57,612 bases of DNA from Deltaproteobacteria bacterium (GTDB lineage Bacteria; Desulfobacterota; Syntrophia; Syntrophales; UBA2185). Below, in pieces: positions 1 to 11,565 of this stretch (positions within the stretch are counted from its first letter, which is position 1; each line of letters begins with the position of its first letter). The notes beneath the pieces were generated by a model. That model was given only the letters and a program-made list of their open reading frames with translations. It made no database searches and was not told where the DNA came from. A program made the translations under genes and the position numbers. The stretch spans positions 1-57,612 of the forward strand of contig JAPLJS010000078.1 of assembly GCA_026388545.1 (NCBI GenBank), given 5' to 3'.

Positions 1-1347
1 AACATTATTTGACAAAAATGCCCAATACACACAAGAACGGTTCATCCCCACGCCTGTGGGGAACAGATTATCTTCAAATGCTAATCTCTTGAAGAAGTCG
101 GTTCATCCACACGCCTGTGGGGAACATCTGATAATCGAAATGTCTTTCGTTGATACTTTCGGTTCATCCCCACGCCTGTGGGGAACATACACAAAAGCAT
201 ACAGAATATAAGAGAGGTCTCGGTTCATCCCCACGCCTGTGGGGAACATAGAGGCATGCGCCACGGCAGCAAGCGGCCTGACGGTTCATCCCCACGCCTG
301 TGGGGAACATCCGACGGGATTACCGATATAAAGTTGTATGATCGGTTCATCCCCACGCCTGTGGGGAACATACCCTTTGAAATGCCTCTTCCGCCTGCAA
401 TGCCGGTTCATCCCCACGCCTGTGGGGAACATTTGGTTGAGCTTTCCACCGCGGAACCCTGAATCGGTTCATCCCCACGCCTGTGGGGAACATCAGGCAA
501 CCGCAGTCCCCCATGTAGCCGCCTTCGGTTCATCCCCACGCCTGTGGGGAACATATTACCTATGAATTACACGACAAACTTGATGCCGGTTCATCCCCAC
601 GCCTGTGGGGAACATGTGGTTACCAATTTTGGTGCCGGTTATTTAAGCGGTTCATCCCCACGCCTGTGGGGAACATGATAGAGGCCATACAAGGAAGCTT
701 TTCCGAAGTGGTTCATCCCCACGCCTGTGGGGAACATTGCGGCGATTTCAGACAGCCTTTTTAAAACAACGGTTCATCCCCACGCCTGTGGGGAACATTG
801 GGAGGTGATGATTTATGCAGCAGGTTCCACCGGTTCATCCCCACGCCTGTGGGGAACATATCACACACGGGACGGGAAACAACCAGTTAGGCGGTTCATC
901 CCCACGCCTGTGGGGAACATAAAATCGGAAATGAACGATGGGGCAACCTGATCGGTTCATCCCCACGCCTGTGGGGAACATATTAATTCTCCCAGGGCCT
1001 TGTCCTGATTGGCCGGTTCATCCCCACGCCTGTGGGGAACATGAGGATATCGTTTCTGCCGTGGCGAGACCGTCCGGTTCATCCCCACGCCTGTGGGGAA
1101 CATAACAGGCAGTGCGTGGTATGCGAGTCTGTAACCGGTTCATCCCCACGCCTGTGGGGAACATTCCTCATCCCGCGCAGGCGCTGCAAAGATCATCGGT
1201 TCATCCCCACGCCTGTGGGGAACATATTTCGAGGCAATGGTACCCATAGAGGATTGCCGGTTCATCCCCACGCCTGTGGGGAACATTTTATGGGCGCTTC
1301 GCATCCATCGCATGTCGCCGGTTCATCCCCACGCCTGTGGGGAACAT
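1..1347 (-). CRISPR. Type I-E CRISPR array, at least 23 repeats
   Basis: Twenty-two full 29-nt repeats start at 38 and recur every 61 nt to 1319, separated by 32-nt spacers with no length variation. Bases 1-5 match the last five bases of another repeat and 6-37 is one more 32-nt spacer, so the array continues beyond the left edge. Each repeat has the inverted core CCCCAC-GCCT-GTGGGG. The reverse complement begins ATGTTCCCC and ends GAACCG, like the E. coli I-E repeat, so the crRNA strand is minus and the leader lies on the right next to cas2. Variant repeats: the one at 38 ends in G instead of T, the one at 99 has an A inside the stem, and the one at 709 begins with T instead of C. I could not assign any spacer to a source. 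Confidence 0.98.
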
Positions 1348-1414
1348 ACTTCTTGTATCTCCTTGAATTTATATTCAATTTTCAAAGAGCAATTTTCTAC
1401 CAAAAAAATGACAG
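1348..1414 (-). promoter_or_regulatory. CRISPR leader
   Basis: This AT-rich stretch lies between the stop of cas2 and the newest repeat. Read on the minus strand it contains ATTGCTCTTTGAAAATTGAA, similar in character to AT-rich I-E leaders. It is only 67 nt long, so any promoter and integration-host-factor site would have to sit here or extend into the end of cas2. I did not identify an exact IHF site. Confidence 0.75.
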
Positions 1415-2630
<1,216 letters not shown>

Positions 2631-2833: not shown

Positions 2834-3682
2834 CTACGCTTTCAGTCGTTTCCTGCTCTCCGGTTCGCTCAGGTAATTTTCCGGCGAGACGACCCGTTTG
2901 CCGGTTTTCTTTTCAAGGTCTTTTCGCGCCTTTCCCGCAACCCCTCCGCCTTTCCGTGCGGCTGTCTTGCTTTCATGGAAGCCCTGCGCGTCATCAACCC
3001 TGGTTATTTCCGTGGTCGCCGCCTCGCCGAGCATCGAGAAGATCAGTTCCAGGTCGGTCATGTGGTCCCGCAGGTTTTCCCGTTTCAGCCCCTTCAATTC
3101 TTTATGCTCGCCGGGTGTAACACCGAACGCTGCTTTTGCGATCTCCGCCGTGAGGATTTTATACTCCTGCTCCTGCTTCACGTCCCGTTTTTTCCACTCG
3201 TCCGTAAGCTCTTCCCTGACGGCGATGCCGCGCATCCGCTTCTCGATCCAGTCATCGGAATACCCCTTGGCCTTATAGATCGCCCGCGACCTTTTCGTTG
3301 CCAGTTCCGGGTCTTCTATTTCCTGAACCCTCTCGTAACCGACTTTTGCCAGCCAGCGCTTGAAGGGTTCGGCCTTAGGGGAAGGGATGGACTGAATGAT
3401 GCGGAAGACGCCTTCTGTGTTGGCGCAATTGACTTTTTGCTTCCCTCCAGGAGTTTCTATCCAAAGGGGGGTGGCAATTTGCCCCCACCCTTTGGATAAC
3501 TCCTCGTCACGACGACGCATATCTTTGATATATCCGGATGGATCCTTTGAATCGGTCAATACATCGACAACATCAGATATCACAAACCACCATTCGTTGT
3601 TATGAAGTGTTTTGCGGATACCCCTGCCTCGAAAAAGAGCAATTTTTGTTTCGATCTGAGGCGGAACATTCTTTTTAGTCAT
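2834..3682 (-). CDS. Bro-N family protein (antirepressor / DinD-like) inside the cas operon
   Basis: A 282-residue protein with an N-terminal Bro-N-like domain, about residues 10-115: FRGRGIRKTLHNNEWWFVIS, then DVVDVLTDS, and a second half with FKRWLAKVGYERVQEIEDP. Bro-N domains occur in phage antirepressors, baculovirus BRO proteins and DinD-like proteins and usually bind DNA. The C-terminal half (IRGIAVREELTDEW-type helices, then a Lys/Arg-rich tail) has no motif I can name. The ATG at 3682 has GGAG 8 nt upstream. It lies between cas5e and cas1 on the same strand, with a 109-nt gap before it. This is not a standard I-E gene. It may be a passenger of phage origin or a regulator; the sequence does not decide. 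Confidence 0.8.
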   Translation of the reverse strand: MTKKNVPPQIETKIALFRGRGIRKTLHNNEWWFVISDVVDVLTDSKDPSGYIKDMRRRDEELSKGWGQIATPLWIETPGGKQKVNCANTEGVFRIIQSIPSPKAEPFKRWLAKVGYERVQEIEDPELATKRSRAIYKAKGYSDDWIEKRMRGIAVREELTDEWKKRDVKQEQEYKILTAEIAKAAFGVTPGEHKELKGLKRENLRDHMTDLELIFSMLGEAATTEITRVDDAQGFHESKTAARKGGGVAGKARKDLEKKTGKRVVSPENYLSEPESRKRLKA

Positions 3683-5707: not shown

Positions 5708-6397
5708 TTACAGGTTAATTGGAGCAAGGAGCAGCAGACCGAAACCAAAGCCCTTGGCGCTGCCAATACCAGACTGATATGTTTCGACAAACCCCTCAGA
5801 ATCGGTCACTTCCAGGATTCCACGAAACTGGACGCCGCCGTGGTAACCGGTTTGTCCTTTCTTGCGGAAGTGGCTTTCTAACATCGGACAAATTTCGAGA
5901 GGCCTTTCTTCTAAGATTCGAAACCCACCAGGCACATCCAACCCGGTTTTCTGATCCCGACATCTAACTTTGCCTTTGTGAATAAGCCAGGTACGCAGTT
6001 CTTCCGGTTTTACCAGCGAAACTCGTTTCCCATTCTTTCGTTTGCCATTGGGGCGCAACAAGGTTTCTCCGTTGGGACCTCGCTGCACAATGGTCTTCAC
6101 GGGGTTTACCCGCACGTCAAAGGCATAATAGCGATGAGAGAGGAACGAAGGGGCAATCTCCTTAAGAGCAAAACCGTCAGGAGGGCACCATTCAGGTCGC
6201 ACAGGTTTTCTCTTAGCCAGAATCCAGAGCCTAAACGCCCCTTCCATCTGATCAATCCGAGTTAGGAAATCCCGTTTGGCATTAGGATCATCGGGAAAAC
6301 ATCCCTCCCATAACCGCTTATGCCAGGCGTAGTTGTCTGAAATGTCTTCAGCACGGGCGGTTTCCGCATCAATTTCTAAACGGGCCAGCCAGTTCAT
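5708..6397 (-). CDS. cas6e: crRNA endonuclease Cas6e (CasE/Cse3)
   Basis: A 229-residue Cas6e, which cuts pre-crRNA at the base of each repeat hairpin and stays bound to the 3' end. Tyr23 and His26 in DNYAWHKRLW occupy the positions of the active-site Tyr23/His26 known from Thermus Cse3. The C-terminal glycine-rich loop is GIGSAKGFGFG. Its start overlaps the cse2 stop by 4 nt (ATGA). In the E. coli operon this gene follows cas5; here it precedes cas7. Confidence 0.95.
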   Translation of the reverse strand: MNWLARLEIDAETARAEDISDNYAWHKRLWEGCFPDDPNAKRDFLTRIDQMEGAFRLWILAKRKPVRPEWCPPDGFALKEIAPSFLSHRYYAFDVRVNPVKTIVQRGPNGETLLRPNGKRKNGKRVSLVKPEELRTWLIHKGKVRCRDQKTGLDVPGGFRILEERPLEICPMLESHFRKKGQTGYHGGVQFRGILEVTDSEGFVETYQSGIGSAKGFGFGLLLLAPINL

Positions 6398-6882
6398 ATA
6401 TCCTCCTCAGAGACGGGTGCCGTGCCTTGCGTCCAGAAAGCGGCTGCCCATTCGGTCTTGGTGCGGTCGCTCCAGAATTTTAAGTCGGTCTCGAGTTGTT
6501 CGTAATTGACTGGTACGTTTTGCGATTTTGCCATGCGCACCATTCGCAGTATGCGGGAATAAATCTCGGATTTTTCAGCAGCAAGCAGATGCTGGAATCG
6601 CCGTTCGGTTGGGGTCAACTTGTTATCACGGCCTCGTACTTCACCCCGCTTATTCTCAATTGCCTGGCAAGTAGTACCGAAATTTCCTGTAGATGTCTCT
6701 TCGGGATGGGTCGCAAAGAACCCCGCAGTATAGGCTGAATCATCATCTTTTATCGCAATCCCAAGACGATTCAACGCCGGCCAGGCACGGTGTTTTTTGT
6801 TGTCCACAAGTATGCACCGAAGGTTGGCCATTATCCCCCGGTCATCTTTGTACTTGCGGAGTCGTTCGAGAAGCCAGCTCAT
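6394..6882 (-). CDS. cse2: Cascade small subunit Cse2 (CasB)
   Basis: A 162-residue Cse2, the all-helical small subunit present in two copies that stabilises the R-loop. Recognised by size, by its place between cse1 and the Cas6/7/5 genes, and by the pattern of a helical N-terminus (LRRxLG-like ANLRCILVDNKKHRAWPALN), FFATHPEE and the basic EIYSRILRMVRMAKSQNVPV segment. It overlaps both neighbours by 4 nt. Cse2 is poorly conserved, so the call rests partly on position. Confidence 0.92.
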   Translation of the reverse strand: MSWLLERLRKYKDDRGIMANLRCILVDNKKHRAWPALNRLGIAIKDDDSAYTAGFFATHPEETSTGNFGTTCQAIENKRGEVRGRDNKLTPTERRFQHLLAAEKSEIYSRILRMVRMAKSQNVPVNYEQLETDLKFWSDRTKTEWAAAFWTQGTAPVSEEDI

Positions 6883-8453
6883 ATTTCCTCCTCCTTGGTT
6901 TCATGGGTATCCGATTCAGGTTCGTGTTTCATGGTTGTCAATTTTTGCCACCCTTTGGCAAAGGCGCGCATTTGCCTTGGTGTCTCCTGCCCGCAGGCAA
7001 TACGATAGGCTTCACATGCGGCGATGAAGAGCATTTTTCGCCATGACTTGCGGGTGGGAATGGCGGCATCGGAGCCTATGGCGTCGATGTGGTTCATGAG
7101 GAGTGAGAGATTTTTTTCGACGGTTGTCCAGTAATGGGTGGTGGCAAGAGCGTGGAGCTTTGCCTTGAGTTGCCCCTTGGCTGGTCCGGCAGACTTAAGT
7201 TTCCCTTCCCACCCATGATCAATTTCCCCCCGATAAATTTCGACAGCCCAGCCAAGGCGGATAGCCATGGCTTCGGCATATTTTACCTCTGCTTCATAGG
7301 TTGCAGCCCCCCCGGATGAACGAAGACTTGATGGAATATGAAAGGCCGATTCTATTGTATCAACAATAGTTGCCTGATTGCGAGCTAATGCAGCAACGAT
7401 AAGATCACATTCTTCACCGTCTTGAATGGCGCGAAGAGATAAGGGACCGCCCAATCCTTCAGACGTTCGTTTAACGACAACTGCCGCAAGTTCGCGCCAG
7501 AGCGCCTTTGCTGGGCGGTATGAAAGTAACGCCCGCTCTTCCTTTTCACCCTTCTTCCTGATCATTACCGTTGCGGTTGGTTCTGGGGGGAATCCATCGG
7601 TATATGGTGGATATGCCAAACCGTCGCCCAGTAACATTCGCTCACCAGAGGGATGTATAAGGATAAGACGCGTCATTGGCACAAGACGACCTACATAGGT
7701 TGTTGTTGCATTTACCACCCCTATTGAATCAGCAAATGATGTCGGCGCCATCTCCCACACCGGCTTTCCGAAATTCCGTTCACCGTAACTGAATCGAATA
7801 TCCTCATAATTCGGCAAATTAAGGTGGATTGTCTCCAGAAGGTTTTCATCGCGCAGGAAGGCATGAAGCATGGATGCAGAAACACAAGGGCCGTCTTTCG
7901 ATGATTTTCCGGTCTGTTTATCACCCCAATACACCTGAGAAATAAGCCCGCCTGGTGAAAAACATTGAAAAGTCAGCATTGAGAGAGCAGTTTCAGCAAA
8001 AGCGATACACCTGTCTTCACTCATTCCACCATGATCAAAAAGCGTAGTGTTATTCCCGGTTGCAAGCGAGAAATTTAACTTCGACACTGGTGTCCAATCC
8101 AAAGTATTATCCGTAGAAGCTGTCTTGATAACATTTCTGGAAAGCCCAGCCACTTGCAACCACGGCTTCGTCGCATGGAATATCTCGAACGAATCTTTCC
8201 AAGTCGTCAGATACTTCCGTGCTTCTTCGGGCAACTTTTTGGGCGCATCGCACCACTCGTCATAATCCTTCGGGCCGTTGAGCGCCGCATGAGCAACACA
8301 AATAAAGAGGCGCATCAGGGCAACCCGCTCATGCGGGCGCACCGCCAGGTCGGAGAAATTTTCACCTTCGGTAAACACGGTACACAAGCTCACCAGTTTT
8401 CGTTCGCCCGCGGTGGTTACAACGGGTATCCACGGGTCAAAAGCAACATTCAT
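6879..8453 (-). CDS. cse1: Cascade large subunit Cse1/Cas8e (CasA)
   Basis: A 524-residue Cse1, the subunit that reads the PAM and recruits Cas3. The N-terminus MNVAFDPWIPVVT matches the NLLIDNWIPV start of E. coli CasA (502 residues). Later parts include KPWLQVAGL, FSPGGLISQVYWGDKQTGKS in the place of the L1 loop region, and a helical C-terminal bundle from about residue 360. An in-frame TTG overlaps the cas3 stop at 8468, but ATG 8453, preceded by AGGAGG, gives the conserved N-terminus. It overlaps cse2 by 4 nt. Confidence 0.95.
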   Translation of the reverse strand: MNVAFDPWIPVVTTAGERKLVSLCTVFTEGENFSDLAVRPHERVALMRLFICVAHAALNGPKDYDEWCDAPKKLPEEARKYLTTWKDSFEIFHATKPWLQVAGLSRNVIKTASTDNTLDWTPVSKLNFSLATGNNTTLFDHGGMSEDRCIAFAETALSMLTFQCFSPGGLISQVYWGDKQTGKSSKDGPCVSASMLHAFLRDENLLETIHLNLPNYEDIRFSYGERNFGKPVWEMAPTSFADSIGVVNATTTYVGRLVPMTRLILIHPSGERMLLGDGLAYPPYTDGFPPEPTATVMIRKKGEKEERALLSYRPAKALWRELAAVVVKRTSEGLGGPLSLRAIQDGEECDLIVAALARNQATIVDTIESAFHIPSSLRSSGGAATYEAEVKYAEAMAIRLGWAVEIYRGEIDHGWEGKLKSAGPAKGQLKAKLHALATTHYWTTVEKNLSLLMNHIDAIGSDAAIPTRKSWRKMLFIAACEAYRIACGQETPRQMRAFAKGWQKLTTMKHEPESDTHETKEEEI

Positions 8454-8464
8454 ATGTCCTCCTT

Positions 8465-11041
8465 TCAAGATGATTTTTCAATGACAAGCCCCAGTTCGTC
8501 AGAATAGAAAAGCCGAGTTCCTTTTTTCAAACCCTTCACTTTCACCTCTCCACTCTCCACAACGATTCCAATGCTCTGTTCTCCGTAGAGATAGTCGGCA
8601 AAGGCTGAGCACGGCTCAATGCTGTCAAAACAGTATTTCGGGACTTTCACCAGATTCTTGTGAATTGCCTGGGCGGTAGCAAGTCGATAAAGGTCGCTGC
8701 CGAGTAGCCCTCTTGTGTGATCTATAAAAGCCGCTTCGTGATTTGTGATCATTCGACAGAGAACAAGGGCAATCGTCGGCATCTCGTTAAGACGGGTCTG
8801 CACGCCCTCAGTATCTTCAAGCGCCACCTGCCAGAGGTTGCAGTTTCGAGAGGCCAGCATTTTTTTTGCAGAATCCGATCCAAACCACTCATTGTATAGC
8901 TGTGTCCAAGATTCTGGTTCATCATCCCGATCATGATAAGTCGATTCGATCAACTGCCGTATTTGTAATGGCAGCGACACCTGTGGTTGCGTCTTCCAAA
9001 CTTCAAGAGAACGGAGAAGGACGTAAGGAGCGTACACTTTGGCGTTACTCCCCAGCGCCGTCAGGATTGCTTTCGGTTCCATGTTTCGAAACTCTTCGAT
9101 GGACTGAGTCTCTTCAATAATGCAGAGCTGCGCCTCATCAGCCGGTCGCTGTTCCCGCTCATGCCGCCAGAGCCGCCCGAGGCGTTGGAAGAGCATATCG
9201 GTTGGAGCCAATTCGGTAATCAGAAGATCCGCGTCAAGATCGACGCTCTGCTCTACAACCTGGGTGGAAACGAGAATAGAGCCGCATCGTGTCTTTCCAT
9301 TTTTACCGAGTCGTTCCATCCATTCGTCCTCCAGCTCTTCACGCCGCCAGAAGGGAAACCGCGAATGGAGAAGACCCACGAGGAAATCCTTTTGACTTAT
9401 TTCCATGAACCGTTGGTATTGCTTCTGCGCCACGCCAACAGTATTGCATATCCAGAGCACCGCTCCACCATTCCGAGCAATAGTAATGGCCTTTTCGGAA
9501 GCATTCTCAGCAGCAATAAAATCCACTTTGACGGTTCGCGATTCCGGCGGTGCTGCCGCTATCGGTTTCAGGGGCACTCCTTCCTTTCTTCCGGTGATAA
9601 GAGGATAGGGAAGTTCAACATCAGCTTCCACCTCTTCCGGGTGTGAAGCTATTTGTCTGCGCCGCGTGCCCGTGAGGGTAGCGGACAGGACAATCACCGT
9701 ACAGCCCAGTCCTTCGAGCGTTGTAATCAGTTTGTCGATAAGTTTTCCCGTATAGCGATCGTATGAATGCACTTCATCGAGAATAACCACCTTCCCGGCA
9801 AGGGCGAAGTGGCGAACGAAGAAGTGTTTTGCCGCAACAACGCCAAGCAGTGCCTGGTCGATCGTGCCGACACCGAAAGGGGCAAGCAACGCCCGTTTTG
9901 CCGAGGCAAACCAGTCCCGCCCTGTTCGTGCATCTTCACTGACAGAACAAGCACTTGTAGCAACAGGCAATAGTTCCTCGGCTTGGTCCATTAACCAGGA
10001 ATTTCCGTGAATCAGGCGGCTTGTATTAGATGCGACGGATATACGCCGCACAAACTCCTTCATACGTATGTGCATCCGGTTACTGGTTGCCTGAGTTGGA
10101 AGCGCGAAATAGATTCCCTTTGCTTGTCCTGAAATAAGCAACTGATAGGCCGCCCATAGTGCCGCTTCGGTTTTGCCCATACCCATCGGCGCTTCGACAA
10201 CATAGACGCCAGGTCCGTTCACCGCAGAGAGTGTTTTCTCCTGCATCTCATTGGGAATCCACAGTATATCAGGCTTTTCTACATCATGGAATAGATCGTG
10301 AAACGAAAGGTCACGAACAAATTCAGTTTGCCGAAAGCCGATAGCAGCGAGTGCGTTTTGTGCATGGAAGGCGGCATCTTCATCACCAGTCCTGTACTCC
10401 GGAGAAAAGAACCGTTCATCGGAACCGATCCAGTCGGCAACGGAGGTGAGCCCGGCAAGCCACCAGAGCGAGGGGGACAGGTCGGTGAACTCAAAAGAAC
10501 TGTCATTTGTTGCAAAGTGGCGCCATATCATTCCTGCATTTTCTTTACGCGCATCATCCCAATCAATGTGGCTGTTAGTCTCAGATATTGCTTTATCCGG
10601 CCGGTATCCGCGGTCATTGGGGGGCGTGAGGCGACCATGATGGGCGCCTAGTATAGTTGAAAGAAATTTAGCCGACTTCCTGTCGATACCGCTTTCGGAA
10701 AGAAATGTCTGAATTGCCGCATGGGACACTTTTCCATGATTAGATTCCATTGCTGTATCCCAACAGCAGTTACGGTCAACTTTTACCAGATCGTTTTCTT
10801 TAAGCCATTTTTCGCACTTTCGCTGAAAACCAGGAGATATTTTTCCAATGTCGTGGAGCGCGGCAAGAGCGCCGACCTCTGATGATCGCAAATGAAAGCG
10901 CTCAAGGATCTCCGGAAAGGACTCTGCAATACAGCGTGCAACACATCCGACATTCACCATGTGATCATAAACGGAAAGGCCGGGATTCCCTTCTGGTGTG
11001 GTCTTTGCCCAATATTTGCAATGTGTCGAGATTTCGGTCAT
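8465..11041 (-). CDS. cas3: Cas3 nuclease-helicase, type I-E
   Basis: An 858-residue Cas3 that degrades target DNA after Cascade binding. The HD nuclease domain occupies about residues 1-260, with the motif ALHDIGK (His63, Asp64), HHG around 134-136 and DWIGSDE at 203-209. The SF2 helicase follows: Walker A APMGMGKTE at 283-291, DEVH at 422-425, SAT at 453-455, and the motif VI region QRLGRLWRHE. The length is like E. coli Cas3 (888). The ATG overlaps the stop of the exonuclease gene by 4 nt, and the stop lies 12 nt before the cse1 ATG. Confidence 0.97.
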   Translation of the reverse strand: MTEISTHCKYWAKTTPEGNPGLSVYDHMVNVGCVARCIAESFPEILERFHLRSSEVGALAALHDIGKISPGFQRKCEKWLKENDLVKVDRNCCWDTAMESNHGKVSHAAIQTFLSESGIDRKSAKFLSTILGAHHGRLTPPNDRGYRPDKAISETNSHIDWDDARKENAGMIWRHFATNDSSFEFTDLSPSLWWLAGLTSVADWIGSDERFFSPEYRTGDEDAAFHAQNALAAIGFRQTEFVRDLSFHDLFHDVEKPDILWIPNEMQEKTLSAVNGPGVYVVEAPMGMGKTEAALWAAYQLLISGQAKGIYFALPTQATSNRMHIRMKEFVRRISVASNTSRLIHGNSWLMDQAEELLPVATSACSVSEDARTGRDWFASAKRALLAPFGVGTIDQALLGVVAAKHFFVRHFALAGKVVILDEVHSYDRYTGKLIDKLITTLEGLGCTVIVLSATLTGTRRRQIASHPEEVEADVELPYPLITGRKEGVPLKPIAAAPPESRTVKVDFIAAENASEKAITIARNGGAVLWICNTVGVAQKQYQRFMEISQKDFLVGLLHSRFPFWRREELEDEWMERLGKNGKTRCGSILVSTQVVEQSVDLDADLLITELAPTDMLFQRLGRLWRHEREQRPADEAQLCIIEETQSIEEFRNMEPKAILTALGSNAKVYAPYVLLRSLEVWKTQPQVSLPLQIRQLIESTYHDRDDEPESWTQLYNEWFGSDSAKKMLASRNCNLWQVALEDTEGVQTRLNEMPTIALVLCRMITNHEAAFIDHTRGLLGSDLYRLATAQAIHKNLVKVPKYCFDSIEPCSAFADYLYGEQSIGIVVESGEVKVKGLKKGTRLFYSDELGLVIEKSS

Positions 11042-11565
11042 TTTCCCTCCATCGCTAGCCAGATGGCGGCGACCATGTGGGCGTCGCCCAAGGCGCGGTG
11101 TGCTTGGATATCGGCAGTTGATTTTCCTACGAGATGCCGGTATACAGTGCCAAGTTTATGGTTCGAAAGCCGTGGGAAATGCTGGCGGCTCATTTCGAGG
11201 GTGCAGATGTAGCGGTGATTTAGGCTGAGGCGATGTCGGGGGAATTCGATTCTTAGAAAACCTATGTCAAATTTCGCATTGTGGGCCACCAACACGCTGT
11301 TCTTAATAAAGTCATAAAACTGAGGAAATACTTCTTCCGGCGTCGGTTGTCCGATCAGCATAGCATCGGTGATACCGTGCACTAATTGAGCGCTTTTCGA
11401 TATTTGTTTCGGAGGTTTGACAAAACTGTGGAATTCATCGATGATGGCGCCGTTCTGCACCACGACAGCGCCAATTTCGATTATTCTATCACCCCGTGCG
11501 GCATTGAGTCCTGTTGTCTCAACATCTAAAACAACATGTAATAATGAAGCTTTTCTTATTCGCAT
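11038..11565 (-). CDS. DnaQ-like DEDDh 3'-5' exonuclease, first gene of the cas operon
   Basis: A 175-residue stand-alone exonuclease of the DNA polymerase III epsilon family. All DEDDh residues are present: Asp14 and Glu16 in LDVETTG, Asp100 in AHNAKFD, and His156 and Asp161 in HRALGDA. There is no polymerase-binding tail and no other domain. Its stop overlaps the cas3 start by 4 nt (ATGA), so it is translated with the cas genes. In known I-E systems some Cas2 proteins carry a DnaQ domain, and DnaQ-type exonucleases trim prespacers. A role in prespacer trimming is therefore a reasonable inference here. The start codon has only a weak ribosome binding site. Confidence 0.93.
   Translation of the reverse strand: MRIRKASLLHVVLDVETTGLNAARGDRIIEIGAVVVQNGAIIDEFHSFVKPPKQISKSAQLVHGITDAMLIGQPTPEEVFPQFYDFIKNSVLVAHNAKFDIGFLRIEFPRHRLSLNHRYICTLEMSRQHFPRLSNHKLGTVYRHLVGKSTADIQAHRALGDAHMVAAIWLAMEGK

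What the first reader, a model, noticed from the sequence alone, without database searches (positions are those of the whole stretch)
11038..11565. Stand-alone DnaQ-like exonuclease as first gene of a type I-E cas operon
The 175-residue protein has all DEDDh residues and its stop overlaps the cas3 start by 4 nt, so it is part of the operon. In some I-E systems a DnaQ domain is fused to Cas2, and 3'-5' exonucleases trim prespacers to length. Here Cas2 has no such fusion and the exonuclease is encoded separately at the opposite end of the operon. It may be the dedicated trimming enzyme for adaptation, an arrangement I do not recall as described.
Basis: partly seen in the sequence, partly recalled or inferred. 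Interest (0 to 1): 0.75.

Follow-up and report, generated by a model that had tools for sequence, protein, structure and literature searches.

The report
CRISPR operon with its own exonuclease
A small DNA-trimming enzyme gene leads this bacterium's CRISPR immunity operon, and its relatives lead CRISPR operons of several kinds across the phylum, which suggests that it trims captured virus DNA to spacer size, most often where the host has no other enzyme of that class.

Summary
Window 11038-11565 (-) encodes a 175-aa DnaQ-like exonuclease with all five DEDDh residues. Its stop overlaps the cas3 start (ATGA) in a complete type I-E operon with an unfused 104-aa Cas2.

The association is real. In a sample of its phylum plus one named contig I found 43 relatives. 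23 sit on the same strand at the head of a cas operon: 19 I-E, 3 I-C, 1 I-F. A WYL regulator is often beside them. Seven of the 30 decidable relatives stand alone. None of 79 background DEDDh loci has a cas gene nearby. The family is separate from Cas2-fused DEDDh domains, PolC and epsilon.

I-E genomes in the phylum sample nearly always hold some DEDDh exonuclease (38/44, against 41/80 for other CRISPR genomes). Those whose operon supplies one mostly lack another (4/11 have one, against 27/33; p=0.008, family-level p=0.04).

Best reading: a dedicated 3'-5' exonuclease that trims prespacers in trans for Cas1-Cas2. That step is inferred, not shown. Stand-alone DEDDh genes beside CRISPR are already reported (PMC10284694). 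New here: this family, its spread over I-E, I-C and I-F operon heads, and the complementarity with the host.

The parts
11038..11565 (-). Stand-alone DnaQ-like DEDDh exonuclease, first gene of the operon, 175 aa
   Evidence: fold model pLDDT 89 with PolC/epsilon exonuclease as best solved matches
8465..11041 (-). cas3 (HD nuclease-helicase), start overlaps the exonuclease stop by 4 nt
6879..8468 (-). cse1/casA (ORF start; the true start may be a little inside)
   Evidence: PF09481 1.1e-75
6394..6882 (-). cse2/casB
   Evidence: PF09485
5708..6397 (-). cas6e
   Evidence: TIGR01907
4459..5682 (-). cas7e (from the likely ATG)
   Evidence: TIGR01869
3792..4469 (-). cas5e
   Evidence: PF09704 7e-43
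2834..3682 (-). Bro-N domain gene inside the operon; role unknown
   Evidence: PF02498 4.5e-14
1707..2630 (-). cas1e (from the likely ATG)
   Evidence: PF01867; 82-92% identical in relatives
1415..1726 (-). cas2e, about 104 aa, not fused to a DEDDh domain
   Evidence: PF09707 1.8e-37, translation
1..1348 (-). CRISPR array, 22 repeats of 29 nt at exact 61-nt spacing, cut by the contig end

Best explanation
The gene is a CRISPR-operon accessory encoding a stand-alone DEDDh 3'-5' exonuclease. It most likely acts in trans on prespacers held by Cas1-Cas2: Cas1-Cas2 protects the spacer-sized core and the PAM side, and the exonuclease chews back the exposed 3' overhangs to the length that can be integrated. 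This is the job done by the DEDDh domain fused to Cas2 in the Megasphaera I-E system, and by host DnaQ/ExoT with E. coli Cas1-Cas2 in vitro. The operon carries its own enzyme chiefly where the host genome has no other DEDDh exonuclease. Shown by sequence: the fold, the intact catalytic residues, co-directional and often translationally coupled linkage, recurrence over three CRISPR subtypes, and complementarity with host DEDDh content. Inferred: co-expression, activity on DNA 3' ends, any contact with Cas1-Cas2, and trimming as the role.
For: Catalytic residues invariant. 23 of 43 family members head a cas operon, 19 I-E, 3 I-C, 1 I-F, and the exact -4 overlap with the next gene is a possible start in 8 loci. 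0 of 79 background DEDDh loci are near cas genes. Co-occurrence with I-E Cas2: 10/19 against 3/136 in the order and 9/22 against 35/373 in the phylum. An unrelated DEDDh type fills the same slot in L184 and L189, and in L187 it is fused to Cas2. I-E genomes hold a DEDDh in 38/44, other CRISPR genomes 41/80, no-Cas1 genomes 35/80. Operon-supplied DEDDh goes with absence of another in the host: 4/11 against 27/33 have one, p 0.008, family level p 0.04. The fused DEDDh of Megasphaera trims prespacers and its authors propose the same for unfused exonucleases (PMC10284694).
Against: Linkage at cas3 could equally mean a role in interference. One I-C operon with the gene also has Cas4 (L043). Seven decidable members stand alone. 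Close relatives of this very operon lack the gene (L179, L210). The window's own host has one other RNase_T protein. In E. coli, DnaQ and ExoT are dispensable for prespacer ends in vivo (PMC9699676). Spacer lengths are not clearly more uniform with the gene: off-by-one spacings in 2 of 13 arrays against 5 of 15. Phylogeny is only partly corrected for.
Confidence: 0.6

Rival explanations
1. Interference partner: the exonuclease degrades the DNA ends or single strands that Cas3 makes during target destruction, helping to clear the invader and perhaps feeding primed adaptation.
For: It is immediately before cas3 in nearly all I-E and I-C loci, often with overlapping reading frames; it also occurs with Cas4 in an I-C operon (L043).
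Against: In the I-F locus it lies next to cas1, not cas3 (L161). The Cas2 fusions point to adaptation. Gene position at an operon head is weak evidence for a direct partner.
Confidence: 0.2
2. Passenger: a general DNA-maintenance exonuclease of a mobile kind that repeatedly sits near defence genes and has no specific CRISPR role.
For: Seven decidable solo members; cas-linked members are not one clade; related I-E operons manage without it.
Against: 77% of decidable members are linked, on the same strand, with tight spacing, to three subtypes; background DEDDh genes are not; complementarity with host DEDDh content.
Confidence: 0.14
3. RNA role: the enzyme trims crRNA or regulatory RNA, or works with the WYL regulator on operon control.
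For: The protein also matches the exoribonuclease profile Rv2179c-like, and RNase T is among the structural neighbours; a WYL gene is often beside it.
Against: The best sequence and fold matches are DNA proofreading domains; from general knowledge, I-E crRNA 3' ends stay bound by Cas6e and are not trimmed; this window has no WYL gene.
Confidence: 0.06

Closest known systems
Cas2-DEDDh trimmer-integrase, type I-E (Megasphaera, PDB 8FY9; S. thermophilus DGCC 7710 DnaQ domain, PDB 8H18)
   Same: DEDDh exonuclease encoded in a I-E operon; same fold; proposed same job on prespacer 3' ends
   Different: Separate gene at the other end of the operon; the domain lies outside the fused group in the best tree (a sister relation is not excluded)
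Stand-alone DEDDh ancillary genes of CRISPR-Cas systems (stated in PMC10284694, citing the Makarova classification)
   Same: Unfused DnaQ-like exonuclease gene in a CRISPR locus
   Different: The source gives no family, position or function; here one defined family heads I-E, I-C and I-F operons and complements host content
E. coli DnaQ (Pol III epsilon) and ExoT acting with Cas1-Cas2
   Same: DEDDh exonucleases that trim prespacers in vitro (PMC9699676)
   Different: Those are host housekeeping enzymes; this one is in the cas operon and scores below the epsilon model cut-off
Cas4
   Same: Operon-encoded prespacer processing (proposed here)
   Different: Unrelated fold; one I-C operon carries both Cas4 and this exonuclease (L043)

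Membership tests
DnaQ-like DEDDh 3'-5' exonucleases (PF00929) | RNase_T fold with the five residues D-E-D-H-D | tested here: met
DnaQ-like DEDDh 3'-5' exonucleases (PF00929) | 3'-5' exonuclease activity | not testable with these tools
   needs purified protein
Housekeeping Pol III epsilon subunit (TIGR01406) | score over the curated model cut-off | tested here: not met
   137.7 bits against 222.7
Cas2-DEDDh trimmer-integrase | DEDDh domain fused to Cas2 | tested here: not met
   Cas2 is about 104 aa and ends before any DEDDh domain
Cas2-DEDDh trimmer-integrase | DEDDh domain of the fused lineage | tested here: inconclusive
   separate in the best tree; one joint clade not rejected, AU p 0.17
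Cas2-DEDDh trimmer-integrase | trims prespacers bound to Cas1-Cas2 | not testable with these tools
   biochemistry needed
Type I-E CRISPR-Cas operon | cas3, cse1, cse2, cas6e, cas7e, cas5e, cas1e, cas2e and a 29/32 array | tested here: met
CRISPR ancillary gene | conserved linkage to cas operons beyond chance | tested here: met
   23 of 43 linked, 0 of 79 background; Fisher p 1e-8 in the order and 2e-4 in the phylum for co-occurrence with I-E Cas2
CRISPR ancillary gene | found only with CRISPR | tested here: not met
   seven decidable members have no cas genes beside them

The most novel reading that the evidence does not exclude
Type I-E adaptation in this phylum generally needs a DEDDh exonuclease. 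It is supplied by the host, by a Cas2 fusion, or by a swappable gene at the operon head (at least two unrelated DEDDh types fill that slot), and the same gene also serves I-C and I-F. Operons pick up the gene mainly where the host has none.
Probability: 0.4. Interest if true: 0.7.

Novelty: new variant of a known kind. Interest (0 to 1): 0.52.

Why it matters
Which enzymes make prespacer 3' ends in type I systems without Cas4 is still open: the E. coli study held here (PMC9699676) found DnaQ and ExoT dispensable in vivo and left the set of enzymes undetermined, probably through redundancy. Hosts whose only DEDDh exonuclease is the one in the cas operon remove much of that redundancy. They would let the question be answered with one gene deletion, and they offer an unfused exonuclease partner for spacer-acquisition recorders.

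Tried and rejected
Housekeeping epsilon: rejected on model score and tree. A Cas2 fusion split into two genes: not favoured by the best tree, though not excluded by the AU test. Chance neighbour of cas3: rejected. I-E-only linkage: rejected by I-C and I-F loci. A single acquisition by CRISPR: rejected, since cas-linked members are not one clade. More uniform spacer lengths with the gene: not clear. Plasmid and phage origin: no close relative there, best about 43% identity. Shmakov 2018, Makarova 2020 and Drabavicius 2018 are not held, so an earlier description of this exact family cannot be excluded.

Full report
Observation. The ORF at 11038-11565 (-) encodes 175 aa, matches RNase_T at 2.1e-37 and keeps D14, E16, D100, H156 and D161, all invariant among 12 relatives. 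The gene ends inside the start of cas3 (ATGA). It heads a complete I-E operon: Cas3, Cse1, Cse2, Cas6, Cas7, Cas5, a Bro-N gene, Cas1 and Cas2. An array of 22 repeats at exact 61-nt spacing follows and runs off the contig end. Cas2 is about 104 aa and unfused. A model from 12 sequences has mean pLDDT 89. Its best solved matches are PolC exonuclease and Pol III epsilon; the S. thermophilus DnaQ domain and the Megasphaera DEDDh domain rank lower.

Is the linkage more than chance? In the order (155 genomes) and an even sample of the phylum (395 genomes) there is a clear family at roughly 45-64% identity, well set off from other DEDDh proteins. With one locus of a named Desulfuromonadaceae MAG (L055) and a remnant at a contig edge (L207) there are 43 members. 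I read up to 20 kb around them. 23 are on the same strand at the head of a cas operon: 19 I-E, 3 I-C (L043, L050, L051) and 1 I-F (L161) (the I-C and I-F assignments rest and on the ORFs). In eight loci the exact -4 overlap with the next gene is a possible start. Of the 20 without visible cas genes, 13 have less than 1.6 kb of contig left downstream; seven are clearly solo. None of 79 background DEDDh loci, 1.3 Mb in all, has a cas gene detectable with the same panel. Co-occurrence with the I-E type Cas2 is 10/19 against 3/136 in the order and 9/22 against 35/373 in the phylum, p 1e-8 and 2e-4.

Anatomy of the neighbourhood. Behind most of these genes the I-E Cas1 and Cas2 are 80-92% identical to those of the window, while Cas3 and Cascade proteins are often only 25-40% identical. 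The effector has been exchanged while adaptation genes and exonuclease stayed similar. A WYL-domain regulator is often next to the exonuclease gene; this window lacks one. In two loci of another family (L184, L189) a quite different DEDDh protein with an N-terminal extension fills the same slot between WYL and cas3. In L187 a DEDDh domain is fused to Cas2 and no separate gene is present. In the best tree the window family is one side of a branch (support 73/89), apart from the Cas2-fused domains, PolC and the divergent pair. A sister relation to the fused domains is not excluded (AU p 0.17). The cas-linked members are not one clade (AU p 4e-66), so linkage was gained or lost repeatedly.

A test of function by host content. 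If I-E adaptation needs a DEDDh exonuclease, I-E genomes should have one from some source. In the phylum sample 38 of 44 I-E genomes have an RNase_T protein. In a control set without I-E, 41 of 80 genomes with another Cas1 and 35 of 80 without Cas1 have one. The I-E effect remains with genome size in the model (z 3.9). Operons that bring a DEDDh (this family, the divergent pair, or the fusion) sit in hosts that have another in 4 of 11 cases; hosts without an operon copy have one in 27 of 33 (p 0.008; family level p 0.04). The window's own host has one other RNase_T protein, so it is not the cleanest case. Limits: phylogeny is only partly handled, the tests were not planned before the data were seen, first-look sensitivity varied for one genome (G061), and PF00929 is only one class of 3'-5' exonuclease.

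Mechanism. The Megasphaera Cas2-DEDDh fusion trims 3' overhangs up to what Cas1-Cas2 protects, and its authors propose that unfused exonucleases act likewise in trans (PMC10284694). In E. coli DnaQ and ExoT do this in vitro, but loss of both costs only twofold in vivo, which the authors think may reflect redundancy (PMC9699676). The host-content result fits an operon gene that supplies this activity where redundancy is missing. I therefore favour prespacer trimming (0.6) over help to Cas3 (0.2), a passenger (0.14) or an RNA role (0.06). Linkage alone cannot decide between the first two, and one I-C operon has Cas4 as well (L043), which argues against a simple replacement for Cas4. That the gene belongs to the cas transcription unit I hold at about 0.9 from the sequence alone.

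Novelty. Stand-alone DEDDh genes in CRISPR systems of every type are stated as known in PMC10284694. The 2025 classification (PMC12669027) does not mention DnaQ, DEDD or exonuclease in its main text. I found no held paper describing this family, its place at the head of I-E, I-C and I-F operons, or the complementarity with the host. Key surveys are not held. I rate it a new variant of a known kind.

Noticed in passing
window 2834-3682 (-); also L037, L043, L174, L182, L183, L186, L208, L209, L212: A Bro-N domain gene sits directly upstream of cas1 inside the operon, and copies 64-96% identical stand before cas1 in many related I-E operons and one I-C operon; more distant ones lie between WYL and cas3 (L178, L206). 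Recurrent and unexplained; one paper search found nothing.
   Followed up: partly
L035-L049 and L155-L174 against window 1415-2630: Cas1 and Cas2 are 80-92% identical across families while the Cascade and Cas3 genes in front of them belong to several divergent I-E lineages (often 25-40% identity), which points to frequent effector exchange in front of a near-constant adaptation pair.
   Followed up: partly
L184:9858-10940 (-), L189:6408-7352 (+): A second, unrelated type of stand-alone DEDDh protein (315-361 aa reading frames, N-terminal extension) occupies the same slot between a WYL gene and cas3 in two genomes of one family.
   Followed up: partly
L053:9792-10318 (+): The cas-linked exonuclease gene is broken by a frameshift in this genome while the operon behind it looks intact; a sequencing error is not excluded.
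   Followed up: no
L041, L044, L045, L050: In related genera the exonuclease gene follows an ADP-forming acyl-CoA synthetase-like gene, with a cas operon behind it in one genome (L050) and none visible in another (L044), as if the cas genes came or went around it.
   Followed up: no
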